From positions 2,480,001-2,544,000 of the forward strand of contig NZ_JACCBB010000001.1 of the NCBI RefSeq assembly GCF_013409345.1: 64,000 nt of DNA, read 5' to 3'. Source of the DNA: Kineococcus aurantiacus (GTDB lineage: Bacteria > Actinomycetota > Actinomycetes > Actinomycetales > Kineococcaceae). This document shows, piece after piece, positions 5,122-56,203 of this stretch. Made by a program: the position numbers and the translations under genes. The notes below the pieces were generated by a model. That model ran no database searches. It was not told the origin of the DNA and saw nothing but the letters and a program-made list of their open reading frames with translations. Positions within the stretch are counted from its first letter, which is position 1; the number at the start of each line of letters is the position of its first letter.

Positions 5122-10403
<5,282 letters not shown>

Positions 10404-10626
10404 CCACGCACCAGCCACCATCAGGGCCAGTCGTAAGGATTGGTGTGGTGGGTGATGGTGTGGGTGGAGAGTGCAAACAATCTTGATGCTTTGATGAGCA
10501 GTTGCTGCTTGAGTGTTCGCGTCCATTGTGTGGTTCTCGGGAGAGAACCCGCCCACCGCCACTCGTGGTGCATGCGCAGGCGTGCTCGTGTGTGGTGGTG
10601 GGGTGGTTTGGATCCTGGCCTGTGTG
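10404..10626 (+). other. 23S-5S spacer
   Basis: No gene is seen. The first bases (CTACCACGCACCAGCCACCA region) pair with the sequence before 23S to form the processing stalk. A perfect 7-bp hairpin GGTTCTC-GGGA-GAGAACC lies at 10532-10549 and probably marks a processing structure. Confidence 0.7.
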
Positions 10627-10743
10627 GTCCGGTGGTCATAGCGGTGGGGAAACGCCCGGTCTCATTCCGAACCCGGAAGCTAAGCCCACCAGCGCCGATG
10701 GTACTGCTCGGGAGACTGGGTGGGAGAGTAGGTCACCGCCGGC
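10627..10743 (+). rRNA. rrf: 5S ribosomal RNA (operon 1)
   Basis: The sequence contains the typical 5S core GGTGGTCATAGCGGTGGGGA, ATTCCGAACCCGGAAGCTAA, GCGCCGATGGTACTGC and GGGAGAGTAGGTCACCGCC. The terminal stem pairs GTCCGGTGG with CACCGCCGGC. Length is about 117 nt, with ends placed by the terminal stem. Confidence 0.95.
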
Positions 10744-10764
10744 CACTCACTCTTGTGGTGAGAA

Positions 10765-10806
10765 GCGTGTGGGGAGCAGCCCGAATGCGGGCCGCTCCCC
10801 ACACGC
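10765..10806 (+). terminator. rRNA operon 1 terminator hairpin
   Basis: A 13-bp stem (GCGTGTGGGGAGC / GCTCCCCACACGC) closes an inner CCCG-AATG-CGGG hairpin. It begins 22 bp after 5S. There is no U-tract; the stem differs from operon 2 only in the loop. Confidence 0.75.
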
Positions 10807-10825
10807 GTTCGTGCGTCCACGCACG

Positions 10826-10874
10826 ACGACGAAGAGGGCGGTACCCCGCATCGGGGTACCGCCCTCTTCGTCGT
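10826..10874. terminator. Perfect bidirectional terminator hairpin
   Basis: A 23-bp perfect inverted repeat (ACGACGAAGAGGGCGGTACC...) with a 3-nt loop CAT lies between rRNA operon 1 and the convergent monooxygenase gene. It can terminate transcription from both sides. It is absent from operon 2. Confidence 0.8.
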
Positions 10875-10892
10875 TCCCGGCCGTCTCGCCGC

Positions 10893-11942
10893 TCAGGCGG
10901 CGGGGGTCCACCCCAGGTGCGGCGCCACGTGCTCGGCGACCGCGCTCAGGACCCGGCGGTGCACCTCCAGCGAGCCTTCGGCCGGCAGCACGACGACCAG
11001 ACCGTCGGTCTCCCCGACCGCTTCATCGGCCAGCAGTCGCTCGACGATGCCCTCGGGGTCCCCGCTGAGGACGGGGCTGTAGCGGACCGGGAAGGGGGAA
11101 GCCCCGCGCGGCCGCCCGTCGGACGTCATGCCGGAGGTGTAGCCCTCGATGAACTCTTGGTGGGCTTCGGCGTCGTGGTGGTCCAGGAAGGGCAGCACGA
11201 TGCGCCCGGCGGAGACCCGCGCGTCTCGGCGGCCGGCGTGGCCGGCGTCCGCGAAGGCCTTGCGGTAGCTGCGGATCTGGCGGGCCTGCACGATGTCGAA
11301 GGCCTCCCCCGTCTCCTCGGTGTTGAGGGTGGAGACCTGCAGGTCGAACCCCTGCCGCCCGGTGCGGACCGCGGTGGACTCGCTGCCGGCCCCGTACCAG
11401 AGCCGGTCGACCAGACCCGGGGCGTGGGGAGTCATCGTCAGGTCCCCGCCGGCGGGGATGCCCATGTAGGGGGCTGCGGCCTGCGCGATCGGCTCACCGG
11501 CGAGCGCACGGCGGAGCACGTCGATGCGGTGCTGAGCCTCCCCGGCGAAACCCCGCTCGGAGGTGCCGTGCACGGGGTCGAGCGCGGCGGCCAGCGGGGG
11601 GATGCCGTTGCTGAGCCCGAGCTCGAGCCGTCCCCCGCTGAGGAGGTCGACGGTGGCGGCGTCCTCGGCCAGGCGCAGCGGGTCCTCGTAGCGCATGGGG
11701 ATGACGCCGGTGCCCAGGGCGATGCGGGAGGTGACCTGGGACGCGGCGGCGAAGAACGTCATGGGGGAGGACAGGTACGGCTCGTGGTGGCGGACCCGCA
11801 CCCACGCCGAGTCGTAGCCGAGGTCCTCGGCGTGCCGGACGAGCGACAGGCCGTCCCGCAGGGCTCCGCCGGGACCGTCCGAGCCACCCTCGGCGACGAA
11901 GGTGAGGAACCCCAGCTCGAGCCGCCGGCCAGCCGTCTGCAT
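10893..11942 (-). CDS. LLM-class flavin-dependent oxidoreductase
   Basis: A 349-residue protein with the TIM-barrel pattern of bacterial luciferase-like monooxygenases: RLELGFLTFV near the N-terminus, GLSLVRHAEDLGYDSAWVRVRHHEP, then TSRIALGTGVIPMRYEDPLRLAEDAATVD. It probably uses FMNH2 (or F420) to oxidise a small organic substrate; the substrate cannot be told. The start is the ATG at 11942 because GGAGG lies 4 bp before it; a longer frame would put the ribosome site inside the gene. An AT-rich TATAGTTTAAGGTAC element just upstream could be the -10 or an operator of a MarR/HxlR-type repressor. Converges with rRNA operon 1. Confidence 0.85.
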   Translation of the reverse strand: MQTAGRRLELGFLTFVAEGGSDGPGGALRDGLSLVRHAEDLGYDSAWVRVRHHEPYLSSPMTFFAAASQVTSRIALGTGVIPMRYEDPLRLAEDAATVDLLSGGRLELGLSNGIPPLAAALDPVHGTSERGFAGEAQHRIDVLRRALAGEPIAQAAAPYMGIPAGGDLTMTPHAPGLVDRLWYGAGSESTAVRTGRQGFDLQVSTLNTEETGEAFDIVQARQIRSYRKAFADAGHAGRRDARVSAGRIVLPFLDHHDAEAHQEFIEGYTSGMTSDGRPRGASPFPVRYSPVLSGDPEGIVERLLADEAVGETDGLVVVLPAEGSLEVHRRVLSAVAEHVAPHLGWTPAA

Positions 11943-12077
11943 CACGCCTCCAAAGTGTTTGTACCTTAAACTATAGACCACTCCTCAGTGCCGTGCCACT
12001 GCACGGGGAGTGACGAGGCCCACGGAGCTGTGGAGGAGCGGCGAGCCGGACCCCGCCGGGCGGTTACGGTCCCCGCT

Positions 12078-12437
12078 GTGGAGTTCGGCGTCGCGAGCGA
12101 GGAGCTGGTCGCAGCCGCGGGAGTGCTCCGCTCCGACGCGGGACGGGTCTCGGGGACCGAGGCGCAGTGGTCGCGGGCCGCGGAGCAGGTACCCGGGTGG
12201 GCTGTCGGCCGTGCTCGTCGTGCGGCACAGGCCTTCTGCGACACGCTGGGCGCAGCCGCCCGGGACGCCGGGATCGGTCTGCACCGCCTCGGTGACCGCG
12301 TGGCGGCGGCCGCCGGCGAGTACGACTCGGTGGAGCAGCGGCTCGTGCCCGGCCCCCCGCGGCAGGACGCCAACCGGGTGGATTCAGCACCCCCTCGCTT
12401 GATGCCGTCGGGGGGTCCGCCGACACCCTCACCGTGA
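12078..12437 (+). CDS. Small helical protein, possibly ESX/EspC-like
   Basis: A 119-residue, alanine-rich, almost wholly alpha-helical protein with two predicted long helices (about residues 5-50 and 52-95), a W in the first half (EAQWSRAAEQVPGW) and a proline-rich, disordered tail. This architecture resembles small type VII (WXG100/EspC-like) proteins, but no clean WXG turn is present, so the assignment is weak. The GTG start at 12078 is chosen because the homologous-looking part begins with VEFGVASEEL. Its stop codon overlaps the next gene's start by 4 nt (GTGA), so the two are translationally coupled. Confidence 0.45.
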   Translation: MEFGVASEELVAAAGVLRSDAGRVSGTEAQWSRAAEQVPGWAVGRARRAAQAFCDTLGAAARDAGIGLHRLGDRVAAAAGEYDSVEQRLVPGPPRQDANRVDSAPPRLMPSGGPPTPSP

Positions 12438-13474
12438 GTGAAGGAACGCAGGCCGGGCGCACCCCGCCGTTGGCGTCGTCCCCCGTGCGCGGTGCGCGCG
12501 TCCGCGGACTGCTGCACGGCCTGGCGGTCGGTGAGGTCCTCGGGGCCGGTGCCGCCCCCACGGGTGTCCTGACGCACGGGGTGGCGACGCAGCTCGCGTG
12601 CTTCACCGCGGCCGCGAGCATCCGCAGCTGCCTGCGGCACGCCGTGACGGGCTCCGCCGACGGCCGGGCCGACCTGCTCGAGGCCTACCGCCAGTGGGCC
12701 CGCGTGTGGAGCGCCGGGCGCGAACCCTCGGTGGCGTGGCTGGACGAGGTCCCGCTGCTCGCGCACGCGACCGGTGCGGCCGCGGACACCGTGCGAGGCC
12801 TCGCGACGGGCGGCGGCGGGACGCGGCGGGAGCCGGTCACGACGGCGGACGGCTGGCACGCCCTCGCCCGCGCCCTGCCGCTGGCGGCGCAGGTCGGCCG
12901 CGACGCGGCCGGTGCCGTCGAGGTGGCGGTGGACTCGGCCGCCCTCACCCACGGACCGCGCGCCTTCGCCCCCACCGCGCTGGCCGTCCTCGTGGCCGGC
13001 GCGGCCCTGCGCACCGGCGACCCGGTGCAGGCGGTCGCCGACGGCATCACCGCGGCGATCCTGCTCGGGGTCGACTTCGCCGCCGTGTCCGTCGCCGACG
13101 ACGCCGTCCGGGCCGCACGGGAGGCTCCGGGTTCCCCCGTGGTGCTCCGGTCCGGGGCCCCGGACGGCAGCGCGGCCGCCGCGCTGTGGGGGGCCACCTA
13201 CTGCCTGCTGAGCCACCCCGGGCGGACCACGGCCGCGCTCGCCCTCGCGGCGACCGCCCCGGACCCCGTCGCGGTCTCCTGCGTGACCGGTGCCCTGCTC
13301 GGGGCCGCCCACGGCGACGGCGCCCTCCCGCAGCCGGTGCTCACCCGGATCGACCTCGCGTACGTCGTCGACCGGCTCGCGCGCGACCTGGCCCGGGTGA
13401 ACCGGGTGAACCCCGACGGCAGCCGGGAGGCGTCGTCCGACCCCGCGTGGCGGGCCCGGTACGGGATCAGCTGA
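12434..13474 (+). CDS. Degenerate ADP-ribosylglycohydrolase-like protein
   Basis: The 346-residue protein follows the ADP-ribosylglycohydrolase (DraG/ARH) fold pattern: an N-terminal helix with VRGLLHGLAVGEVLGAG (canonical GxxxGDAxG), and a C-terminal helix with VAVSCVTGALLGAAHG (canonical GGDTDTxAxxxGAxxGA). The dinuclear-metal residues are mostly missing: the TDDT segment reads THGVATQLA and the GGDTDT segment reads TAPDPVAV. Compare the intact paralogue at 25300-26673. It is therefore probably catalytically inactive or a binding/immunity-type protein. Coupled by a GTGA overlap to the small helical protein upstream; its 3' end overlaps the convergent GH4 gene by 8 bp. Confidence 0.65.
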   Translation: MSEGTQAGRTPPLASSPVRGARVRGLLHGLAVGEVLGAGAAPTGVLTHGVATQLACFTAAASIRSCLRHAVTGSADGRADLLEAYRQWARVWSAGREPSVAWLDEVPLLAHATGAAADTVRGLATGGGGTRREPVTTADGWHALARALPLAAQVGRDAAGAVEVAVDSAALTHGPRAFAPTALAVLVAGAALRTGDPVQAVADGITAAILLGVDFAAVSVADDAVRAAREAPGSPVVLRSGAPDGSAAAALWGATYCLLSHPGRTTAALALAATAPDPVAVSCVTGALLGAAHGDGALPQPVLTRIDLAYVVDRLARDLARVNRVNPDGSREASSDPAWRARYGIS

Positions 13475-14822
13475 AGACGGCCGCGACCTCGGGGATCGCG
13501 GCCACGTAGCCGTCGAGCAGTTCCCGGGCGACCTCGACGGAGTCGACCAGCGGGTGCAGCGCGAAGGCCCGCAGGGCCTCCGTCCGGTCGCCGTGGACGG
13601 CCGCGGCGATGGTGTGCCGCTCCACGGCCTTCACCTGCTGCATGAGGCCCAGCTGGTGCAGGTCGGGCGCCGCCGTCGACAAGGGGTGCACGCCGTTCGC
13701 GTCCACCGTCGCGGGGACCTCCACGACGGCGTCGTCGGGCAGCCCCGCGATCGTGCCGCCGTTGCGGACGTTGAGGATCATCGTCGAGCGCTCGTCCCGG
13801 CTGATCGCGGCCATCACCGCCAGCGCGACCCCCGCGTAGCCCTGCTGCGACGGGTCGAGCTCGGGCTGGTCCTGGTGGACGGGCGCGCCCTGCTCACCGC
13901 CCTTGGCCTCGGCCATGTAGCTGGCGCTGCGGGCGGTCACGGTCTCGCGCCACAACTGCGCGGCCCCGTCGCCGGCCGTCGCGAGCCGCTCCCAGAACTC
14001 GCCCTGCGTGGCGAGCAGGAACTCCCCGCGGGTCTGCTTCGCCGCCTTGATCGAGGCGACCGCCTCGCGCTGGGAGTAGTAGTAGTGGAGGTACTCGTTG
14101 GGGATGGAGCCGAGCGTGCGCAGCCAGTCGCGGCCGAACACGAGCCCCTCCTCCAGGGCGCCCAGCGCGGCGTCGTCGGCCAGCAGCCGCGGCAGGACGT
14201 CGGTGCCGTCGAACAGCACCCGGCGCATCCAGCCGAGGTGGTTCAGGCCCACGTAGTCCATCTGGACGCGCGTGTGGTCCAGGCCCAGCAGCCCCGCGAC
14301 CCGCCGGCCGAGCCCCGAGGGGGTGTCGCAGATCCCCAGCACGCGGTCGCCCAGCACCGACTGCATCGCCTCGGTGATGATGCCCGCGGGGTTGGTGAAG
14401 TTCAGGAAGTGGGCGTCGGGGGCGAGCTCGCGCACCTGCCGCGCGACGTCGAGCATGAACGGGACGGTGCGCAGCGCGTAGGCCAGCCCCCCGGGTCCGG
14501 TCGTCTCCTGCCCCAGGACGCCGAGGTCGAGCGCGACCCGCTCGTCGCAGCACCGGCCGCGCAGGCCGCCGATGCGGACCGCGGCGAAGATGAACCGGCT
14601 GCCCTGCAGCGCCTCGGGCAGCACCGTCGTGGGGACGAGGCGGGGGGCGTCGGGGAAACCCTCGGCGAGCTGGCGCAGGATCCGCACCATGCCCTCGAGC
14701 CTCGTCGCGTCGACGTCGTGGAGGGCGACCTCGTCGACGCGGGGGCTGCCCGTGTCGCGCAGCAGCGCCTGGTAGACGTAGGGGGTGCGGAACCCCCCAC
14801 CGCCGAGGATGCACAGCTTCAC
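13467..14822 (-). CDS. Glycoside hydrolase family 4, probable 6-phospho-beta-glucosidase
   Basis: A 451-residue protein of the NAD- and Mn-dependent GH4 family, of typical length. It starts with the dinucleotide-binding MKLCILGGGGFRTPYV. NFTNPAGIITEA and GICDTPSGLG carry the cysteine metal ligand, and VGLNHLGWMRR the histidine ligand. These segments match 6-phospho-beta-glucosidases better than alpha-galactosidase or alpha-glucosidase branches. It would cleave phosphorylated disaccharides in the cytoplasm by a redox-elimination mechanism. ATG start. It is divergent from a decayed PfkB kinase, which might once have belonged to the same sugar pathway. Confidence 0.88.
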   Translation of the reverse strand: MKLCILGGGGFRTPYVYQALLRDTGSPRVDEVALHDVDATRLEGMVRILRQLAEGFPDAPRLVPTTVLPEALQGSRFIFAAVRIGGLRGRCCDERVALDLGVLGQETTGPGGLAYALRTVPFMLDVARQVRELAPDAHFLNFTNPAGIITEAMQSVLGDRVLGICDTPSGLGRRVAGLLGLDHTRVQMDYVGLNHLGWMRRVLFDGTDVLPRLLADDAALGALEEGLVFGRDWLRTLGSIPNEYLHYYYSQREAVASIKAAKQTRGEFLLATQGEFWERLATAGDGAAQLWRETVTARSASYMAEAKGGEQGAPVHQDQPELDPSQQGYAGVALAVMAAISRDERSTMILNVRNGGTIAGLPDDAVVEVPATVDANGVHPLSTAAPDLHQLGLMQQVKAVERHTIAAAVHGDRTEALRAFALHPLVDSVEVARELLDGYVAAIPEVAAVFS

Positions 14823-15018
14823 GTCCTGATCGCCTTCCCGCCGTCCTCGACCACCGCCCGGCGCCGCCCGCTCGGGATCACCTCCCGACCGTAACGGGCG
14901 GGCACGGACCCCGCCAGGGTCGGGCGCGGGACCCGCTCACGCCTGCGCACGTCCTGGCTCCCCGCGCGGGCCGACGGCACGATCGCCGCACCACCGGATG
15001 ACGCGCGCAGGAGGGACC

Positions 15019-15752
15019 GTGGCGGACCTCGACGTCCTGCTCGGCGGCCGACTGTTCTGCGACCTGGTGTTCTCCGGTTCCTCCCTGCCGGAGCCGGGGG
15101 CGGAGGTGTTCGCCGACGCCTTCGTCCTGAGCCCCGGCGGCACGGCCGACCGGGCGACTGCGGTGACCGTCGCGGTCACCGACGAGCACGACCGCAGCTC
15201 CACCACCTACGAGGAGGCCGCCACCGAGGTCCCGCGGGAGTGGCCCGGGCAGCTGCCCACGGCCGCGACCTGCCACGTCGGCGTGGCCGGTGAGGTCCCC
15301 GGCTGGGTGGACGCGCTGCGCGCCGCGCGGACCGTGGTGTTCGGCGGTGTCGGCTGGGACGCGAGCCGCGAGTGGTCACCGGCCGTCCTGGACCGGCTGG
15401 CGCACGTCGACGTCTTCGTGCCCGACGAGGTCGAGGCCACCAGCTGCACGCGCACCGACGACGCCCTCGCGGCGGCGCGGGTGCTGGCCGAGCGGGTGGG
15501 CACCGTCGTCGTCACGCGCGGGGCCCGGGGCAGCCTGGCGGTCGACGGCTCCGGGGCGGTCGTCGAGGAACCCGCGCCGGTCGTGCCCGTCGTCGACCCC
15601 ACGGGCGCCGGCGACGTGTTCGTGGCCGGGTTGATGACGGCCACCCGGCTGGGGTGGGGCCTGCGGGACCGGCGGAGGTGCTGCGGTTCCTGCAAGGGAC
15701 CGCACCGCGGGAGGGGTACCGCGTCATCCACGACTGGGCGGTGACGGGGTGA
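15019..15752 (+). pseudogene. Decayed PfkB-family sugar kinase
   Basis: A good ribosome site (GGAGGG, 15010-15015) precedes GTG at 15019, and the product begins like a ribokinase/PfkB kinase (DVLLGGRLFCDLVF). After the conserved GG motif (SPGGTADRA) the frame jumps directly to VTVAVTDEHDRS, losing the usual 50 or more residues of the lid and substrate region. The catalytic DPTGAGDVFVAGL is intact, but about 12 codons later the frame is lost: the natural-looking C-terminus (PAEVLRFLQGTAPREGYRV) is in another frame and ends at 15752, while the original frame ends at 15744. Intact homologues are about 300 residues. A functional sugar kinase is unlikely. Confidence 0.75.
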
Positions 15753-36013: not shown

Positions 36014-36108
36014 GGGGGCAGCGTAGGGGCCCTCGCGCGCCCGGAGTCGCCGGCGGGGCTGTGGACGGACCGGTCCTCCACCTCCTGCTCCCCGCGTACG
36101 GTGCGGCG

Positions 36109-36579
36109 GTGAGCGCGTGGCAGGAACCCGGCCCCGCCCCACCACCCTCCAACCCCGCCGTCGCCGGGATCATGCGCCGCACCGGCCGCCGCGACACCCG
36201 CCCCGAGCTCGCGCTGCGCCGCGAGCTGCACCGCCGCGGCCTGCGCTACCTCGTCGACACCACCCCGCCGGGCACCAACCGCCGCCGCCGCGCCGACCTC
36301 GTCTTCCGCGGCGCGCGAGTCGCCGTCTTCGTCGACGGCTGCTTCTGGCACTCCTGCCCCGTCCACGTCCACCGGCCCAAGGCCAACGCGACCTGGTGGC
36401 GGATCAAGCTCGCCAGCATCACCGCCCGCGACCGCGACACCGACGCGGCGCTCGCGGCGGCCGGGTGGCACGTCGTGCGCGTGTGGGAGCACGAGCCGCC
36501 GGTGGCCGCCGCGGACCGCGTGCACGGCGTCGTCCACGCCCGCCAGAAATCACCCTCGCGGGCGGTGGCGGGTCCGTAG
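36109..36579 (+). CDS. vsr: Very short patch repair (Vsr) endonuclease
   Basis: 156 residues with the Vsr fold pattern: MRRTGRRDTRPELALRRELH, then RRRADLVFRGARVAVFVDGC carrying the catalytic Asp, FWHSCPVH with the zinc Cys and His, and KANATWWRIKLASITARDRD, then WHVVRVWEHE. The enzyme nicks at T:G mismatches that arise by deamination of 5-methylcytosine. No cytosine-5 methyltransferase gene lies next to it, so it is an orphan here. The GTG at 36109 is chosen as start; divergent from the GntR gene. Confidence 0.9.
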   Translation: MSAWQEPGPAPPPSNPAVAGIMRRTGRRDTRPELALRRELHRRGLRYLVDTTPPGTNRRRRADLVFRGARVAVFVDGCFWHSCPVHVHRPKANATWWRIKLASITARDRDTDAALAAAGWHVVRVWEHEPPVAAADRVHGVVHARQKSPSRAVAGP

Positions 36580-36607: not shown

Positions 36608-37330
36608 GTGTCCCGCTCTCCGATGTCCCGCCGCGCCGCCGTGGCCCTCGCCGTCGCCGGGCTCACCGCCTGCAGCGCCGACCCGCCCGCCCCCGCGTCC
36701 CCCGCGGCCACGACCCCGACGACCCTGTCGTGGACCGACACCCACCTCACCGGCAGCGACGGTTCCCTCACCTGGGACGTGGTGGTGCCCCGCGCCGCGG
36801 GTGCGCCCATCGCGGACGAGCTGAACCGGCGCGTGACCGCCTCCGCGCAGGACGTCGTCGACGCCGCCCGCGCGACCGTGCAGGCCGGCGACCCGCCGCG
36901 CACCCTCACCGGGCAGGGCACCGTCACCACCGACGACGGCCGCACCGCGCAGGTCCTGCTGGAGGTCGTCGACAGCACCGAAGGCACTGCCCACCCCACC
37001 ACCACCGTCGCCTCCACCGTCCTCGACGTGCAGCGCGCCCGCCCCCTCACCCTCGACCTCGTCTTCACCGACCCGCCGGCCGCGTTCACGCAGCTCGCCC
37101 CCGTCGTCGAGGACCTCGCCGCCGCGCAGGGCGAACCCGTCACCACGCCGGAAGGCCTCACGCCGGAGGAGGCGAACTGGGCGACCTGGCAGTCCGGGCC
37201 CGAGGGGATCGCGTTCTCCTTCCAGGACTACCAGCTCGGCGGGCACGGGGTGCGGCGGTACGTCGTGCCGTGGGAGCAGGTCGAGCCGCTGCTCACCGCC
37301 GAGGCGCGGGAACTTCTGGCGCCCGCCTGA
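36608..37330 (+). CDS. Lipoprotein with RsiV-like DUF3298 domain
   Basis: 240 residues: signal peptide with lipobox (AVALAVAGLTAC, Cys about residue 22), a proline/threonine-rich linker, then an RsiV/DUF3298-like beta-rich domain with RARPLTLDLVFTDPPAAFTQ and the closing segment AFSFQDYQLGGHGVRRYVVP, typical of that domain. Exposed at the cell surface, function unknown. GTG start with GAGGAGG. It stands 28 bp after vsr but the link is probably only positional. Confidence 0.78.
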   Translation: MSRSPMSRRAAVALAVAGLTACSADPPAPASPAATTPTTLSWTDTHLTGSDGSLTWDVVVPRAAGAPIADELNRRVTASAQDVVDAARATVQAGDPPRTLTGQGTVTTDDGRTAQVLLEVVDSTEGTAHPTTTVASTVLDVQRARPLTLDLVFTDPPAAFTQLAPVVEDLAAAQGEPVTTPEGLTPEEANWATWQSGPEGIAFSFQDYQLGGHGVRRYVVPWEQVEPLLTAEARELLAPA

Positions 37331-37384: not shown

Positions 37385-40300
37385 TCAGGCCGACTGGACG
37401 ACCGTCGCAGCGGCGAAGAAGTCCATGGGCATTTCGTGCCGCAGCTTCCAGGTGATGGCGATCGGACGGTCGCCCCGGTGGCTGACGTAGTCCGCCTGAC
37501 CGAGGAACAGGAACGGCTCAGGCCCCAGGTCCCCGGTCTTGGCGGGGCGCGCGAAGAGCAGGACGTGCGTCCCGTTCTCCCGGTGGTGGAGGTACCGCTG
37601 GCCGGTCACCGAGGCGACGCTGGTCGTCGACTGCGACTCCCAGTGAAACAGCTCACGCGTGAGCGGGTAGTCCCGGTACATCGTGGTCGGTGAGAAGTCG
37701 GCGTCCGACTTGTTGAGCGTGATGAGGAAGGCGTCGGTCTCCAGGTGAGGAGCCCACAGGACTCCCTCGCGGAAGCGTTCCGGCGGTCGCTTGTCGCTGA
37801 TCAAGCCCAGCGCCGCGACAATCTCGTTGCGCGAGTACCGGGCGTGGACAGCGAGTGGTACGTCGTGCAGCGAGCCGGCCAACTCGGCGGTGGGTCGACG
37901 AGCCGTGTCGAACGCGAGGTCGACGACCTGGGACAGCTCGTCGCGCACGGCCGGTTCATCCACCGCACCGGCCAGTCGCGACAGGTGCGCCTCGCTGTAG
38001 CTCCCGGGCACCAGCGAGGCCGTCAGCATGCGGGCCAGCGCTTCCTCGACCGAGCCAGTGGGCTGCTCACCGCGGAGGAGGCGGCGGTAGGTCTCGGCGC
38101 GGGCGCTGTCGTCCACGTGGGCGACGGCAGCAACCCGCTTGAGGAGCTTCGGCTCGAGGTCACCACCATCAGGGACGTCGAGCCCAGCCTCGCGGCACAG
38201 CATCGTCCACGAGCGGTCGCTCCGGAGCACCTCGCGCAACCCGTGACCGGATTCGGCCAGGAAGGTCGCGAGCGCCGTCGTCCCGAGGCTGCGGACCTCG
38301 TTGACAAGCGCCCGCCGCTGCGGCTGCAGCTGTCGCTTGAGGCTGCTGAGCACGCGCTCCTGCACCACGCGGTCGAGCACGATGGAGCAGCCGGTGGGCA
38401 GGAGGGGGAAGCCCTTTTCGACCTGCTGGGCGAGCCGGCCGCGGGCCAACCCGGTCAGCGCCTGGAAGCGCGCGTCGAAGCGGAAGCCTTCGTTCTGGTT
38501 GCCGACGAAGTCCAGCACGGTGAGCACGGCCTTGCCGTGCGCGGTCCGCAGGCCCCGGCCCAGCTGCTGGAGGAAGACGGTGGACGACTCGGTCGGGCGG
38601 AGGAAGAGGGCGGTGTCCACCTCGGGGACGTCGACGCCCTCGTTGTAGAGGTCGACGGTGAAGATCGCGGCGATCTCACCGCGACGCAGCCGCCCCAGCG
38701 CGCTGGTGCGCTCTTGGGTGTCGCTCTCGCTGGAGACGGCGACCGAGGGGATCCCGGCGTCGGTGAAGACGCGCGCCATGTACTGAGCGTGCGCGACGGA
38801 CACGCAGAAGCCGAGCCCCTTGATGGCCTGCGGATCGCTGACGCGCCGCTCCAGCTCCCGCAGGACGATGCGCGCGCGGGCGTCGTTGCCGGTGTACAGG
38901 TTCTCCAGCCCATCGACGTCGTAGCGCCCTCGGGACCACTTCACGGCCGAGAGGTCGACCTCGTCGTTCACGCCGAAGTAGTGGAACGGGACGAGGAGGT
39001 CATCGGCGAGCGCGTCCCACAGTCGGAGCTCGGTGGCGATGCGTCCGTCGAACAGGGCGAGGACGTCCCGCCCGTCACCGCGCTCCGGTGTCGCTGTGAG
39101 GCCGAGGAGCTCCATCGGCTCGAAGTGCTCCACGACGCGTCGGTACGTCGGTGCCGTGCCGTGGTGGCACTCGTCGAGGACGACGACGTCGAAGGCGTCG
39201 GCGGGGAGCGACGCGATGCGCTGAGGCGTCAGCGACTGCACGCTCGCGAAGACGTGACGACCCTCCCGGGGTTCGAGCCCTCCGACGAGGAGCTCACCGA
39301 ACGACCCGTCCGCGAGGACTTGCCGGTAGGTCCGCATCGCCTGCTCGAGCAACTCCTTGCGGTGCGCGACGAAGAGCAGCCTCAGGTCGCGGCCGTGCTG
39401 TCGTCGTAGGTCGCGGTAGTCCAGCGCAGCCAGGACGGTCTTGCCCGTGCCCGTCGCGGCCACGACGAGGTTCCGGTGCCGGCCGTGCAGCTGCCGCTCG
39501 CCGGCGAGCTGCTCAAGCATCTCCTGCTGGTGCGGACGAGGCGTGACTTCGATGGACGACATGTCCACCGGTGTCCCGCTCTTGCCGGTCGCGCCCGCGT
39601 CGCGCAGTGCAGCGTCCAGCCGTGCGGCATCGCGGTCGGGGTCGTAGGTCTCGAAGGTGGGGCTGGCCCAGTAGCTCTCGAACGTGGCGTCGAACTTGTC
39701 GATCAGAGCGGGCGTCGCCACGCTCGACAAGCGGACGTTCCACTCCAGCCCATCGAGCAGTGCCGACCTCGAGAGGTTGGAGGACCCGACGTAGCCGGTG
39801 TGGAAGCCGGTGTTCCGGCGGAAGATCCACGCCTTCGCGTGGAGACGAGTACGCGTGGTCTCGTAGATGACCTTGACGTCGGCTCCGTAGTCGCGGACGA
39901 GGGCGTCGACGGTGCGGCGTTCCGTGGCGCCCATGTACGTGGTGGTGATGATGCGGACCTTGGCGCCTCGATCACGGAGGCGCCGGAGCGGTTCGTCGAG
40001 GAGGCGCAGTCCGGACCACTTGAGGAAGGCGACGATGAGGTCGACGGAGTCGGCGCTCTCGAGTTCGGCGCGGATCTCGCTGCCCAGAGCGGGCTCCCCC
40101 GGGCTGTTCGTCAGGAGGGCGGCCTCGGAGAGAGGGGTGGCGGGCCGCGGGGGTGTGGCCTCCTGCGTCACGGACAGCAGTTGCTGGAACCGTCCTCTCT
40201 CGTCCAGGACCGGCACACCGGTCGGCGCGTCGAGGACGTCGAGGACGCGGCGGACCAGGTCGTTCTGCGCTGCTGTGGACGACTGGCCGTGGAGCGCCGT

Positions 40301-40468
40301 GAGGATGGCGCGACCGAGGTGCGTCGCGACGACGTGGGGAACGTCTTCGTTGCCCACCGGCGCCAGCTGCGGTGATCCGAGCGTGCCCTGGAGTTGGTCG
40401 AGGAGACCCCGGGAGACCAGCTCTTCCCACAACCCCGGGTTCAAGGGAGGACCCTGCGCTGCGGACAT
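37385..40468 (-). CDS. PLD-nuclease/SF2 helicase/DUF3427 protein
   Basis: A 1027-residue protein. An N-terminal phospholipase-D-like domain (about 120-265) carries one HxK motif (RLHAKAWIF...GSSNLSRSAL). A superfamily 2 helicase follows (about 305-640): Walker A AATGTGKTVLAALDYRDL, DECHHGTAPTYRR, LGLTATPERGDG, and the arginine-finger motif QQLGRGLRTAHGKAVLTVLD. The C-terminal third is a DUF3427-type region with HARYSRNEIVAALG, FLITLNKSDADFSPTTMYRD and a final TWKLRHEMPMDFF. Such proteins recur in defence islands as nuclease-helicase effectors. Third gene of a minus-strand cassette, 33 bp after the DUF2075 gene. Base composition is less GC-rich than the neighbours, suggesting transfer. Confidence 0.9.
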   Translation of the reverse strand: MSAAQGPPLNPGLWEELVSRGLLDQLQGTLGSPQLAPVGNEDVPHVVATHLGRAILTALHGQSSTAAQNDLVRRVLDVLDAPTGVPVLDERGRFQQLLSVTQEATPPRPATPLSEAALLTNSPGEPALGSEIRAELESADSVDLIVAFLKWSGLRLLDEPLRRLRDRGAKVRIITTTYMGATERRTVDALVRDYGADVKVIYETTRTRLHAKAWIFRRNTGFHTGYVGSSNLSRSALLDGLEWNVRLSSVATPALIDKFDATFESYWASPTFETYDPDRDAARLDAALRDAGATGKSGTPVDMSSIEVTPRPHQQEMLEQLAGERQLHGRHRNLVVAATGTGKTVLAALDYRDLRRQHGRDLRLLFVAHRKELLEQAMRTYRQVLADGSFGELLVGGLEPREGRHVFASVQSLTPQRIASLPADAFDVVVLDECHHGTAPTYRRVVEHFEPMELLGLTATPERGDGRDVLALFDGRIATELRLWDALADDLLVPFHYFGVNDEVDLSAVKWSRGRYDVDGLENLYTGNDARARIVLRELERRVSDPQAIKGLGFCVSVAHAQYMARVFTDAGIPSVAVSSESDTQERTSALGRLRRGEIAAIFTVDLYNEGVDVPEVDTALFLRPTESSTVFLQQLGRGLRTAHGKAVLTVLDFVGNQNEGFRFDARFQALTGLARGRLAQQVEKGFPLLPTGCSIVLDRVVQERVLSSLKRQLQPQRRALVNEVRSLGTTALATFLAESGHGLREVLRSDRSWTMLCREAGLDVPDGGDLEPKLLKRVAAVAHVDDSARAETYRRLLRGEQPTGSVEEALARMLTASLVPGSYSEAHLSRLAGAVDEPAVRDELSQVVDLAFDTARRPTAELAGSLHDVPLAVHARYSRNEIVAALGLISDKRPPERFREGVLWAPHLETDAFLITLNKSDADFSPTTMYRDYPLTRELFHWESQSTTSVASVTGQRYLHHRENGTHVLLFARPAKTGDLGPEPFLFLGQADYVSHRGDRPIAITWKLRHEMPMDFFAAATVVQSA

Positions 40469-40501
40469 GTTCCCCTCGAGTGTCGACCTGAACGTATTCG
40501 A

Positions 40502-42262
40502 TCACGGTACAGGGGAGCGTCCGCTACGGACTCGCTGACTCTTGCCGTCGTGTGGCGTCAGGTAGCTACGGAGGTGTTCCCGCAGAGCGGGATCGCACAC
40601 GTACACGTACGTTCCCAGGACGCCTCGGGTCAGCAACACGGCGTACGCGTTCTTGACGTACTGCAGGATGTCGTCATCCGTGTACGTGATCCCGCGTTGA
40701 GGATTGTTCTGCATCCCCTTCTTGTCGTGGTAGTTGGATCGGTCGAAGACGATTCGATCGGTCACCGGGTCGAACCGCAGGTCGGGTCCGATGATGACCG
40801 CCGCGATGTTCAGGTCGTAGCCTTGAGTGGTGTGGACCGAGCCCACTTCGAGGACGGAACCCGGCGCGTTGATCCAGTCGACGTCCGTGCTGTTCCAGCG
40901 CAGCTGGCGGTCGCCGATCGTGATGTCGAAAGCGGCGGGGTCCTTCTTGCTCAGCCACGGCCATGCGTACCCTGCGATGGCCCGCGCGAGCCCCACCTCG
41001 GTGTCCTTCTGCTCGACCGTGGTCAGCATCTCGTCGAAGTCATCGAAGAAGCGCAGGTCGTACCCGGGGAACACTTGCGGCTCGACGGCCGTGCCGTTGA
41101 GGACGCGGCGGATGTAGCCGACGTAGTCGGAGCCGGCCTGCACGCGCATCTGCGTGGTCAGCGAGTAGTGCCGCTCGGCTTTCCTCGCCGTTGCGGTGAG
41201 CTGCTCGAGCGCTTCACGTGGGACGTCTGCTGGACGGACCGCCTGGGCAGCGTCGAGCAGGTAGATCTGGTGGCGGCTCACCTCGTTGATCCAGTCGAGC
41301 TGGGTCAGGTTCAAGTCGTCCTTCCCGAAGAGCTTCTCGTTGACCTCTCGGAAGAGCTTGTTCAAGCTGCCGGACGCCAAGCTCGCTCGCTGGTTCAGAC
41401 GATGCGTCTCGTCGACGATCAGCAGGTCGAAGGGGGTGGCCTGAGCCGCCTCGAAAGGCTTCAACACCATGGACGGGTGGAGTCCAGGAGTCTTGCGGAA
41501 GACCTTCTGGATGGACGCGCGCAACGACTGCTGCGGTACGACGAGGCCGATGCGGAAGTCTTTGAGCAGCGCCGGGTGACCTTCCACGAAGAACTCCGAG
41601 AAGAGGGAGTCGCCGTCGACGGGTTCACTCAGGTCGGCGTGCTGGATGTCGCTCAGCAGTTTGATGAGGTAGATGGCGACGATCGTCTTACCGGTCCCCG
41701 GATCGCCCTGGATGACCAGTCGACTGGGGACCTCCTTCTCCAGGTCGTCGAACAGCCCGGTCAGGATGTCCTCGACAGCGATGGCCTGCTCCGGGGTCAG
41801 CGCCTTGAACGGTGACAACTTGAAGAGGTCGCTGTTCTGGATCTCCTGGAGGGAGCGGTCGAAGGCGCCGCGATCCTTCAGCTCGTCGAAGATCTCTTTG
41901 AACGACTTCTGGTAGTCCTCACGGCCGTAGTAGTCGGCGTTGGTGACTCCGTCGTTGCGGTTGAGCACCTCGTACTTGCCGTCACCGGCGAAGAGCCGGA
42001 TGAGGTAGGACTCCAGGTCCAGGCAGACCGACTTGTTGAAGGTCGGGTCTTTGACGACCCGGGCAGTGCGGACCGGCTTCTTCCCCGCGTCGAGGTGCTG
42101 CTTGAGGCGGCCAGCGGCGTTGAGCGATTCACCGACGTAGACCTTGCCGGGCCCTTCGAGCGTGTACACGACAGGCCAGTTGCGGTGCCGTTCGTCGAGC
42201 TTTCCCCAGGCGCTGATGCTCCCGCTGGTGTACGGGACCTCCTCGATCTCAAAGCCGGTCAT
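40502..42262 (-). CDS. GIY-YIG/DUF2075 (Schlafen-type) ATPase
   Basis: 586 residues with an N-terminal GIY-YIG nuclease-like domain (about 28-110; VVYTLEGPGKVYVGESLNAA, RLKQHL, and DLESYLIRLF with the expected Glu). A DUF2075 ATPase/helicase-like domain follows (about 170-580): Walker A VIQGDPGTGKTIVAIYLIK, DExH-like FDLLIVDETHRL, DAAQAVRP, then VGSVHTTQGYDLNIAAVIIG and NAYAVLLTRG, which match UvrD-like motifs. It could cut and remodel nucleic acid in an ATP-dependent way. The ATG start at 42262 lies inside the end of the MazG-like gene (14-bp overlap). Middle gene of the cassette; codon use is notably less GC-biased. Confidence 0.9.
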   Translation of the reverse strand: MTGFEIEEVPYTSGSISAWGKLDERHRNWPVVYTLEGPGKVYVGESLNAAGRLKQHLDAGKKPVRTARVVKDPTFNKSVCLDLESYLIRLFAGDGKYEVLNRNDGVTNADYYGREDYQKSFKEIFDELKDRGAFDRSLQEIQNSDLFKLSPFKALTPEQAIAVEDILTGLFDDLEKEVPSRLVIQGDPGTGKTIVAIYLIKLLSDIQHADLSEPVDGDSLFSEFFVEGHPALLKDFRIGLVVPQQSLRASIQKVFRKTPGLHPSMVLKPFEAAQATPFDLLIVDETHRLNQRASLASGSLNKLFREVNEKLFGKDDLNLTQLDWINEVSRHQIYLLDAAQAVRPADVPREALEQLTATARKAERHYSLTTQMRVQAGSDYVGYIRRVLNGTAVEPQVFPGYDLRFFDDFDEMLTTVEQKDTEVGLARAIAGYAWPWLSKKDPAAFDITIGDRQLRWNSTDVDWINAPGSVLEVGSVHTTQGYDLNIAAVIIGPDLRFDPVTDRIVFDRSNYHDKKGMQNNPQRGITYTDDDILQYVKNAYAVLLTRGVLGTYVYVCDPALREHLRSYLTPHDGKSQRVRSGRSPVP

Positions 42263-42569
42263 GCTTGGTGCTCCTGCCGCGGGCCTTGTCGACGGGGTAC
42301 TTGGCGCGGGTCTCCTGGAGCTTGTCCAGGACGATCCGGCCGATGTCCAAGTCGAGCTTGTCCGCCAGGAGGCAGCAGTAGGTGAGTACGTCGGCGAGTT
42401 CACCCTGGACCCGTGAGAGGTCGGCGTCCCGATGCCACTGGAAGCACTCGAGGAGCTCGGCCGCTTCGATGGTGATGCTCTTGGCGAGGTTCTCCGGTGT
42501 GTGGAACTGATCCCACTCCCGTTCGGCGACCATCGTGCGGATTTGCGCAAGCACGCCCTCGTCAATCAC
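42249..42569 (-). CDS. MazG-like nucleotide pyrophosphohydrolase
   Basis: A compact 106-residue all-helical NTP pyrophosphatase. The metal-binding pattern is EAAELLECFQW followed by ELADVLTYCCLLADKLDLD (ExxE...ExxD), as in the single-domain iMazG/dCTPase (RS21-C6-like) group rather than full-length MazG. It would hydrolyse a (d)NTP to the monophosphate and pyrophosphate, lowering nucleotide pools. GTG start at 42569; a TAGCAT -10-like element 7 bp before it suggests a leaderless transcript. First gene of the three-gene cassette, overlapping the DUF2075 ATPase by 14 bp. Confidence 0.88.
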   Translation of the reverse strand: MIDEGVLAQIRTMVAEREWDQFHTPENLAKSITIEAAELLECFQWHRDADLSRVQGELADVLTYCCLLADKLDLDIGRIVLDKLQETRAKYPVDKARGRSTKHDRL

Positions 42570-50558: not shown

Positions 50559-55840
<5,282 letters not shown>

Positions 55841-56063
55841 CCACGCACCAGCCACCATCAGGGCCAGTCGTAAGGATTGGTGTGGTGGGTGATGGTGTGG
55901 GTGGAGAGTGCAAACAATCTTGATGCTTTGATGAGCAGTTGCTGCTTGAGTGTTCGCGTCCATTGTGTGGTTCTCGGGAGAGAACCCGCCCACCGCCACT
56001 CGTGGTGCATGCGCAGGCGTGCTCGTGTGTGGTGGTGGGGTGGTTTGGATCCTGGCCTGTGTG
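55841..56063 (+). other. 23S-5S spacer (operon 2)
   Basis: Same as operon 1: 3' half of the processing stalk, then the GGTTCTC-GGGA-GAGAACC hairpin at 55969-55986. No gene. Confidence 0.7.
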
Positions 56064-56180
56064 GTCCGGTGGTCATAGCGGTGGGGAAACGCCCGGTCTC
56101 ATTCCGAACCCGGAAGCTAAGCCCACCAGCGCCGATGGTACTGCTCGGGAGACTGGGTGGGAGAGTAGGTCACCGCCGGC
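56064..56180 (+). rRNA. rrf: 5S ribosomal RNA (operon 2)
   Basis: Same sequence as the 5S of operon 1, about 117 nt, ends placed by the terminal stem. Confidence 0.95.
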
Positions 56181-56203
56181 CACTCACTCTTGTGGTGAGA
56201 AGC

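What the first reader, a model, noticed from the sequence alone, without database searches (positions are those of the whole stretch)
37385..42569. Three-gene MazG-like / GIY-YIG-DUF2075 / PLD-helicase-DUF3427 cassette
Three coupled minus-strand genes combine nucleotide-pool hydrolysis (MazG-like), a GIY-YIG nuclease-like domain on a DUF2075 ATPase, and an SF2 helicase with a PLD nuclease-like domain and DUF3427. The first two overlap by 14 bp and the third follows after 33 bp. The DNA is less GC-rich than its flanks, and a Vsr gene lies 0.8 kb away. Nuclease, helicase and nucleotide depletion are the usual parts of anti-phage systems. I cannot name a described system with exactly this composition. 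The defence role is inference.
Basis: partly seen in the sequence, partly recalled or inferred. Interest (0 to 1): 0.78.

Follow-up and report, generated by a model that had tools for sequence, protein, structure and literature searches.

The report
Nucleotide cleaner paired with nuclease-helicase
Two of the three genes, a small nucleotide-destroying enzyme and a DNA-cutting helicase, travel together in many bacteria and look like an undescribed defence module against foreign DNA, while the third gene belongs to a known family of enzymes that cut methylated foreign DNA.

Summary
The three genes are real and where reported, but are not one conserved three-gene system. Gene 3 (37385-40468) is a SauUSI-type, type IV restriction enzyme (PADLOC mREase_IV, 1075 bits; SauUSI structure 7clg, E=5e-89). 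The conserved unit is genes 1+2: a DCTPP1-like MazG plus a GIY-YIG nuclease fused to a Schlafen-group-3 helicase. MazG is next to the helicase in 88 of 93 loci chosen by the helicase alone, with one other MazG hit in 1.75 Mb. Loci come from several phyla; catalytic residues are nearly invariant. MazG also lies beside related helicases with no GIY-YIG match (7 of 22). SauUSI is beside the pair in 12 of 93 loci, at 12 separate places of the tree. I propose a modification-dependent nuclease-helicase whose MazG clears modified dCTP from the pool, for self-protection or to deny it to phage. The modified-cytosine part is inferred, and one prediction, fewer C5-methylases in hosts, failed (27 of 42 against 18 of 37 genomes). 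PADLOC 2023 does not cover the pair, and my paper searches did not find it.

The parts
42249..42569 (-). Gene 1: DCTPP1-like all-alpha MazG pyrophosphatase, 106 aa, GTG start; metal ligands E35, E38, E57, D60
   Evidence: Pfam PF12643 58 bits; nearest PDB sequence RS21-C6 / dCTP pyrophosphatase 1, E=1.3e-15; model pLDDT 91.1, nearest folds mouse dCTPase incl. 5-Me-dCMP complex; ligands invariant 88/88
40502..42262 (-). Gene 2: GIY-YIG nuclease domain (about residues 29-105) + Schlafen-group-3 SF1-like helicase (184-559), 586 aa
   Evidence: PF09848 211 bits; GIY-YIG residues and Walker A/B kept in 92-93 of 93; model pLDDT 91.9, pTM 0.90, top Foldseek hit SLFN11 7zel E=4.3e-10 but TM only 0.34
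42249..42262 (-). 14-bp overlap of genes 1 and 2 (likely translational coupling)
   Evidence: an in-frame ATG giving the same 14-bp overlap in 44 of 84 scored loci and a 4-bp overlap in 14 of 84
37385..40468 (-). [quoted passage not shown] H210xK, Walker A 338, DECH 432
   Evidence: PADLOC PDLC03659 mREase_IV 1075 bits; PDB 7clg E=5.1e-89; motifs
36061..36579 (+). Neighbour: Vsr-type endonuclease (not part of the conserved pair; near SauUSI also in L020/L185 and L119/L156)
   Evidence: TIGR00632 98.6 bits vs cut-off 97.85; Vsr near SauUSI
36608..37330 (+). Neighbour: 240-aa ORF of unknown function between Vsr and gene 3
   Evidence: no Pfam match at E<=0.01; tblastn against L020-L031 and L156-L158 found no other copy

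Best explanation
Genes 1+2 are a two-gene mobile defence module. SHOWN: they form a conserved, overlapping pair; both enzymes keep their active-site residues; MazG is of the DCTPP1 type; the module is patchy, and SauUSI recurs beside it. INFERRED: gene 2 loads on invading DNA, translocates with its SF1/Schlafen-type motor and cuts with the GIY-YIG domain, preferring DNA with a modified base, most likely a 5-substituted cytosine. MazG hydrolyses the matching modified dCTP (for example 5-methyl- or 5-hydroxymethyl-dCTP, released by degraded foreign DNA or made by phage). That keeps it out of the host chromosome, which would otherwise become a target, and also denies it to phage replication. In this window the module sits next to a SauUSI-type enzyme that works on the same principle, and no PF00145 cytosine methylase was found in the host genome.
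For: Pair: MazG within 400 bp in 88 of 93 loci, one other MazG hit in 1.75 Mb. Reverse: 7 of 7 close MazG orthologues among 30 inspected loci lie beside a GIY-helicase. MazG-helicase identity matrices correlate (r=0.714, permutation maximum 0.208, n=88). L022 carries a 33%-identical MazG on the other side of a 57%-identical helicase, and MazG also lies beside PF09848 helicases with no GIY-YIG match (7 of 22; L156), so a MazG seems to be re-recruited. MazG's nearest structures include dCTPases bound to 5-Me-dCMP and dm5CTP. Human DCTPP1 has a lower Km for 5-methyl-dCTP (85 uM) than dCTP (152 uM) (PMC4491611, passages); RS21-C6, DCTPP1 and E. coli Orf135 are described as specific 5-methyl-dCTP hydrolases (PMC10742078, passages). 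The most recurrent close neighbour that I could identify is SauUSI (12 loci, 12 changes on the tree). 8 of those 12 loci also have a MutT/NudG-type Nudix gene nearby. C5-methylase, Vsr and GmrSD genes recur less often. No PF00145 methylase in the own genome.
Against: No experiment. Hosts do not lack C5-methylases: 27 of 42 GIY-helicase genomes tested have one against 18 of 37 without, and a C5-methylase cluster lies within 4 kb of the module in 5 loci. Pfam found no modified-base-reading domain in gene 2. DCTPP1's base-contacting His38 appears not to be conserved (extrapolated 3 residues beyond the alignment). DCTPP1 also hydrolyses plain dCTP. 81 of 93 modules have no SauUSI confirmed within 3 kb (some flanks cut by contig ends), so the link to modified cytosine rests on a minority of loci and on homology. 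SauUSI loci in general rarely carry a MazG-helicase pair (1 of 29, and that one without GIY-YIG) or the Nudix gene (4 of 29). Of 8 Nudix proteins scanned, the NudG model was best in 4, generic MutT or Nudix models in 4.
Confidence: 0.37

Rival explanations
1. Abortive or starvation defence: gene 2 senses phage replication intermediates and nicks them, and MazG is the effector that drains dCTP so that phage DNA synthesis stops, like dCTP-deaminase and dGTPase defences (recalled).
For: DCTPP1-type enzymes also hydrolyse dCTP (PMC4491611 passages); MazG metal ligands invariant; overlapping genes in many loci.
Against: MazG here is 106 aa and Pfam shows no regulatory domain; a constitutively active dCTP drain would be expected to harm the host (inference); MazG is divergently transcribed in L090 and L094 and downstream in L022 and L083, so it is not always coupled. 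In the DCTPP1 study dCTP pools did not change visibly while 5-methyl-dCTP did (PMC4491611 passages; human cells).
Confidence: 0.27
2. Pool hygiene and repair rather than defence: the pair removes damaged dCTP (such as 5-OH-dCTP) and repairs DNA that has taken it up.
For: Mycobacterial MazG is reported to clean 5-OH-dCTP (PMC3855555, title and start of abstract in a search listing); Vsr, a mismatch nuclease, lies within 7 kb of the module in 4 of 93 loci, the window among them.
Against: Patchy distribution (5 of 59 relatives, 9 of 396 of the phylum sample), low GC versus flanks, other genes in its place at the same site in G001 and restriction enzymes as neighbours fit mobile defence better.
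Confidence: 0.15
3. The three genes are independent island neighbours: SauUSI is an ordinary type IV enzyme that happens to lie 33 bp downstream of an unrelated pair.
For: In G001 the pair lies about 7 kb from SauUSI; 81 of 93 modules have no SauUSI confirmed within 3 kb; only 1 of 29 other SauUSI loci carries a MazG-helicase pair, and of a different kind.
Against: SauUSI is the most recurrent close neighbour that could be identified, at 12 separate places of the helicase tree and in several orders; in a sample only 50 of 345 genomes of the class have a SauUSI-like gene at all, so repeated close placement by chance is unlikely. A shared liking for defence islands is not excluded.
Confidence: 0.5
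4. Gene 2 cuts RNA (Schlafen-like translation shut-off) and MazG acts on NTPs.
For: The helicase part is nearest in fold to SLFN11, with SLFN14 and Upf1 among the top hits, all at low TM-scores.
Against: Pfam found no Schlafen RNase domain; the nuclease is GIY-YIG, a DNA-cutting family (recalled); human DCTPP1 shows little activity on NTPs (PMC4491611 passages).
Confidence: 0.08

Closest known systems
SauUSI (Staphylococcus aureus type IV restriction enzyme; PDB 7clg)
   Same: Gene 3: same PLD nuclease - SF2 ATPase - DUF3427 order, E=5.1e-89, HxK, Walker A and DExH present
   Different: C-terminal recognition domain only weakly similar (E=0.012 for the C-terminal 238 aa), so the target sequence may differ; 1027 vs 953 aa
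DCTPP1 / RS21-C6 (all-alpha dCTP pyrophosphatase)
   Same: Gene 1: sequence E=1.3e-15, 36-37% identity in the best fold matches; metal ligands and the aromatic pair W47/W73 (here W19/W45) kept
   Different: Shorter; DCTPP1 His38 apparently not kept; DCTPP1 is known as a housekeeping enzyme (recalled), here it is in a patchy module
Schlafen group 3 helicases (PF09848) and human SLFN11
   Same: Gene 2 C-terminal half: PF09848 211 bits, best fold hit SLFN11 at TM 0.34
   Different: No Schlafen RNase domain found by Pfam; GIY-YIG nuclease instead
PADLOC candidate families PDC-S14 and PDC-S41
   Same: Weak partial matches to the GIY-YIG part (E=3e-7) and helicase end (E=6e-4) of gene 2
   Different: Only about 65-95 residues align; no model in the library matches gene 1 (0 families at E<=0.01)
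SauUSI + Nudix (MutT/NudG-type) gene pairs
   Same: Same logic: a nuclease-translocase beside a nucleotide pyrophosphatase
   Different: Unrelated pyrophosphatase fold (recalled); none found beside gene 3 in this window

Membership tests
SauUSI-type type IV restriction enzyme (gene 3) | PLD (HKD) nuclease + SF2 ATPase + DUF3427 in one chain | tested here: met
   Pfam all over cut-off; H210xK, ATGTGKT 338, DECH 432; PDLC03659 1075 bits
SauUSI-type type IV restriction enzyme (gene 3) | SRA-like 5mC pocket (SauUSI Y831, F841, I842, W868; PMC7913695 passages) | tested here: inconclusive
   I916 and W943 align with I842 and W868, L915 with F841; alignment weak (i-Evalue 0.026-0.15); the Y831 region is not aligned
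SauUSI-type type IV restriction enzyme (gene 3) | cuts only modified DNA | not testable with these tools
   needs enzyme assay; consistent with no PF00145 methylase in the own genome
DCTPP1-type MazG (gene 1) | four acidic metal ligands (E63, E66, E95, D98 of DCTPP1; roles recalled, positions counted on the alignment) | tested here: met
   E35, E38, E57, D60, 88 of 88
DCTPP1-type MazG (gene 1) | base-stacking W47 and W73 (role recalled) | tested here: met
   W19 88/88, W45 87/88
DCTPP1-type MazG (gene 1) | base-contacting His38 | tested here: inconclusive
   extrapolated position carries Ile; outside the aligned block
DCTPP1-type MazG (gene 1) | hydrolyses dCTP / 5-methyl-dCTP | not testable with these tools
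   needs enzyme assay
GIY-YIG nuclease (gene 2) | two tyrosines, arginine, catalytic glutamate and asparagine (motif recalled) | tested here: met
   Y33 92/93, Y42 92/93, R52 92/93, E84 93/93, N101 93/93; Pfam score below cut-off in the window protein, over it in distant relatives L113 and L115
Schlafen (prokaryotic Schlafen RNase) | Schlafen RNase domain | tested here: not met
   of Schlafen families only PF09848 matched
Any described anti-phage system in PADLOC 2.0.0 | family models covering genes 1 and 2 | tested here: not met
   0 families for gene 1; only weak partial matches for gene 2
Any system in DefenseFinder | family models covering genes 1 and 2 | not testable with these tools

The most novel reading that the evidence does not exclude
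A new kind of self-protection in restriction: instead of a methyltransferase that marks self DNA, the system carries a pyrophosphatase (DCTPP1-type MazG, or a MutT/NudG-type Nudix for SauUSI) that keeps the forbidden modified nucleotide out of self DNA. The nuclease-helicase can then destroy any DNA that contains it. The same principle would have been assembled repeatedly from unrelated pyrophosphatases and unrelated nucleases.
Probability: 0.26. Interest if true: 0.88.

Novelty: new variant of a known kind. Interest (0 to 1): 0.62.

Why it matters
Type IV restriction enzymes have no modifying partner, and I know of little work on how a cell avoids cutting itself if modified nucleotides leak into its DNA. 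A conserved gene pair, found in several phyla, that couples a nuclease-helicase to a DCTPP1-type pyrophosphatase gives a direct test: delete the pyrophosphatase and look for self-cutting. If only the weaker claim holds, the pair is still a widespread two-gene defence candidate that PADLOC 2023 does not cover and that my paper searches did not find.

Tried and rejected
Rejected: the three genes as one conserved operon. SauUSI is confirmed beside the pair in only 12 of 93 loci. Three members of the 15-locus SauUSI cluster were left out of the 12: L047 (an SF2 helicase without PLD or DUF3427 match), L043 (335 bits, 2.5 kb away, not checked further) and one member not printed.

Rejected as the main argument: general defence-island enrichment. 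I scanned 161 nearest flanking genes (78 + 83; of 164, three over 1200 aa dropped, genes under 150 aa not considered) with PADLOC. mREase_IV led with 9 members; other families among the 25 listed per scan had 1-5, those with 4-5 being helicase families that probably hit the same SauUSI proteins. Pfam was run on the first 78 only. I ran no random-gene control for these tallies.

Failed prediction: hosts of the module are not depleted in C5-methylases (27 of 42 vs 18 of 37). The 42 are part of the 93 loci and span several phyla; the 37 are part of the 54 same-order genomes without a hit, so the groups are not matched. Control G043 later proved to carry a distant GIY-helicase with MazG; G388, counted with the 42, lacks MazG.

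MazG missing in 5 of 93: L026, L031 (most diverged), L047, L073 (match lacks the first 79 residues), L080. A six-frame re-search found none there. Two distant plasmid relatives also lack it within 4 kb (L154, L155). Of the four viral-contig relatives with a long match, two have MazG (L113, L114); L115 has none (its downstream flank is cut) and L116 only a marginal hit (E=0.008).

Bias to note: the start codon nearest the 14-bp position was chosen, so the 44 of 84 counts loci with an in-frame ATG there. The tree is a quick one.
Full report
OBSERVATION. The reported genes are present. Gene 1 is 42569-42249 (-), gene 2 is taken to start at the ATG 42262 (not the TTG 42565 of the mechanical list) and ends at 40502, and gene 3 is 40468-37385. 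The 14-bp overlap and 33-bp gap are correct. GC is 0.636, 0.629 and 0.695 against 0.735-0.742 in the flanks. Domains: MazG-like (PF12643), Schlafen-group-3 helicase (PF09848; formerly DUF2075 as I recall), PLDc_2 + ResIII + Helicase_C + DUF3427. GIY-YIG is below the Pfam cut-off but its residues are conserved (below). Vsr at 36061-36579 is confirmed.

GENE 3 IS OF A KNOWN FAMILY. It matches PADLOC PDLC03659, type IV methyl-directed restriction enzyme, over 15-944 of 945 positions (1075 bits), and the SauUSI crystal structure 7clg at E=5.1e-89. HxK, Walker A and DECH motifs are present. SauUSI cuts DNA with 5mC or 5hmC in the context S5mCNGS (PMC3874153 and PMC12707154, passages). Its C-terminal domain has an SRA fold with a 5mC pocket of Y831, F841, I842 and W868 (PMC7913695, passages). 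W868 aligns with W943 here, but the C-terminal alignment is weak, so the target sequence cannot be inferred. The own genome has no PF00145 cytosine-C5 methylase, as one would expect for a host of such an enzyme.

THE CONSERVED UNIT IS GENES 1+2. By record title they include Actinomycetota, Bacillota, Bacteroidota, Pseudomonadota and Pacebacteria/Nomurabacteria. MazG lies within 400 bp in 88 of 93: 84 upstream on the same strand, 2 downstream on the same strand, 2 upstream on the opposite strand. One other MazG hit occurs in the 1.75 Mb examined. An in-frame ATG giving the same 14-bp overlap exists in 44 of 84 scored loci and a 4-bp overlap in 14 of 84. In reverse, a search with gene 1 gave 51 matches, of which 30 were inspected: 7 of 7 close orthologues (59% identity or more) lie beside a GIY-helicase, and 6 of 23 more distant ones beside a helicase matched by the same profile. 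Pairwise identities of the two proteins correlate (r=0.714, 88 pairs, permutation maximum 0.208). The main outlier, L022, carries a 33%-identical MazG on the other side of a 57%-identical helicase, so a MazG was replaced or re-recruited.

MazG IS ALSO FOUND BESIDE RELATED HELICASES WITHOUT A GIY-YIG MATCH. In a sample of PF09848 proteins (27 matches in 24 of 148 genomes of the class), MazG was within the fetched 1.5 kb in 5 of 5 with a GIY-YIG match and 7 of 22 without. In L156 a MazG is divergent from a Schlafen-g3 helicase with another N-terminal domain (by eye a PD-(D/E)XK-like ExK; not tested), followed by SauUSI and Vsr. Two of four viral-contig relatives at about 26% identity also carry MazG (L113, L114). 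Negative cases: L026, L031, L047, L073, L080, L115, marginal L116, and plasmid relatives L154, L155.

ACTIVE SITES. MazG E35, E38, E57 and D60 are kept in 88 of 88, W19 in 88 and W45 in 87. In gene 2, Y33 92/93, Y42 92/93, R52 92/93, H56 93/93, E84 93/93, N101 93/93, and the Walker residues G186, G189-K192 and D284-E285 93/93. Both enzymes are therefore expected to be active. The gene 2 model is confident (pLDDT 91.9, pTM 0.90); its motor gives SLFN11, Dna2 and Upf1 as first Foldseek hits, at TM-scores of 0.29-0.36 only. The MazG model (pLDDT 91.1) and sequence are nearest to DCTPP1/RS21-C6, the fold hits including complexes with 5-Me-dCMP and dm5CTP.

NEIGHBOURS. Clustering of flanking ORFs gave one larger cluster of scattered positions, whose representative is an ACR_tran/ABC ORF. 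The largest cluster of close neighbours that could be named is SauUSI. Twelve confirmed SauUSI neighbours, the window included, lie 34-2540 bp from gene 2, upstream, downstream or divergent, and need 12 changes on the helicase tree. In 8 of these 12 loci a Nudix gene lies nearby (L023, L050, L056, L071, L075, L084, L089, L097). For the two searched against the PDB the best hits were a MutT protein (5x1x, L056) and a putative CTP pyrophosphohydrolase (3gwy, L084), with MutT2 and the E. coli CTP pyrophosphohydrolase 2rrk also matched. Of eight scanned with NCBIfam the NudG-type model was best in four, MutT or general Nudix models in four, all below the curated cut-offs. Smaller clusters, named from one representative each or from the window gene: C5-methylase 5 loci, Vsr 4 (the window included), HNH 4, GmrSD 3. 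Among 29 other SauUSI loci of the class, 4 have the Nudix gene within 1.5 kb and 1 a MazG-helicase pair.

SAME SITE IN OTHER GENOMES. Within the genus 2 of 11 genomes, G000 and G001, carry the pair. In G001 the stretch between the aldolase-like operon and SauUSI holds other genes (by eye a Fic-family protein and HEPN/nucleotidyltransferase-like ORFs), and the MazG-helicase pair lies about 7 kb beyond SauUSI and Vsr. In G008 the same flank leads to a broken SauUSI copy and an ORF that looks like a transposase (by eye). The site thus looks like a variable hot spot in which the pair moves independently of SauUSI.

MECHANISM. Human DCTPP1 prefers 5-methyl-dCTP (Km 85 uM) over dCTP (152 uM), and its level changes cellular 5-methyl-dCTP but not visibly dCTP (PMC4491611, passages). 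RS21-C6, DCTPP1 and E. [quoted passage not shown]). That Orf135 is NudG, a Nudix enzyme, is recalled. Two pyrophosphatase families with members known for that activity are thus found beside two kinds of nuclease-translocase, one of them (SauUSI) proven 5mC-dependent. My best reading is that the pyrophosphatase keeps modified dCTP out of the host's own DNA, which protects a modification-dependent nuclease system from cutting self, and may also starve phages of the modified nucleotide. The substrate of MazG, the target of gene 2 and any phenotype are all inferred. Against it: no depletion of C5-methylases in hosts (27 of 42 vs 18 of 37, groups not matched), no modified-base reader found in gene 2, DCTPP1 His38 apparently not kept, and SauUSI near only a minority of modules. 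The nearest rival is dCTP starvation.

NOVELTY. No PADLOC 2023 model matches gene 1, and gene 2 has only weak partial matches. Paper searches for DUF2075 + GIY-YIG (0 papers), MazG + GIY-YIG with helicase and phage (1) and alone (3), DUF2075 (5), MazG + defense system + nuclease + helicase (6), Schlafen + phage defense + helicase (3), type IV restriction + nucleotide pool + 5-methylcytosine (2), and two many-term searches of which only the first 20 and 25 of 86 papers each were listed showed no paper that I could recognise, from titles, starts of abstracts and the passages read, as describing the pair. The library lacks most subscription papers and most preprints; a preprint on bacterial Schlafens is cited in PMC12839542 and was not read. 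A 2025 review raises nucleotide-pool monitoring as a possible phage-sensing route and does not contain the words MazG or Nudix (PMC12707154, passages).

Noticed in passing
window 5122-10744 and 50559-56181: Two complete sets of rRNA genes (16S, 23S, 5S), both on the + strand and about 45 kb apart; they coincide with the other low-GC blocks of the window. No tRNA genes were found in the window.
   Followed up: yes
L156 (G470:C3) about 6800-14700: MazG divergent from a Schlafen-g3 helicase with a non-GIY N-terminal domain, then SauUSI, then Vsr: the same partners as the window with a different N-terminal domain on the helicase.
   Followed up: partly
L023, L050, L056, L071, L075, L084, L089, L097; also L125, L127, L128, L137: MutT/NudG-type Nudix hydrolase near SauUSI-type enzymes; possible general partner of DUF3427 restriction enzymes.
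   Followed up: partly
L186 (G008) about 12740-15750: Broken SauUSI copy (pieces in different frames, from residue 452 on) near an ORF that looks by eye like a transposase, next to a flank shared with the window; described only.
   Followed up: no
L185 (G001) 7554-10967: By eye a Fic-family gene and HEPN/nucleotidyltransferase-like ORFs lie between the aldolase-like gene and SauUSI, where the window has MazG-helicase.
   Followed up: no
L155 (Fructilactobacillus plasmid pLS1): A Schlafen-g3 helicase without MazG nearby has cytosine deaminase and cytosine permease genes on one side and an HNH endonuclease and a DNA adenine methylase on the other.
   Followed up: no
L020 2169-6827 and 7071-8330: A 1552-aa ORF and a DUF4143/AAA_14 ATPase (PADLOC candidate PDC-S01) lie between Vsr and the MazG-helicase pair in G001.
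   Followed up: no
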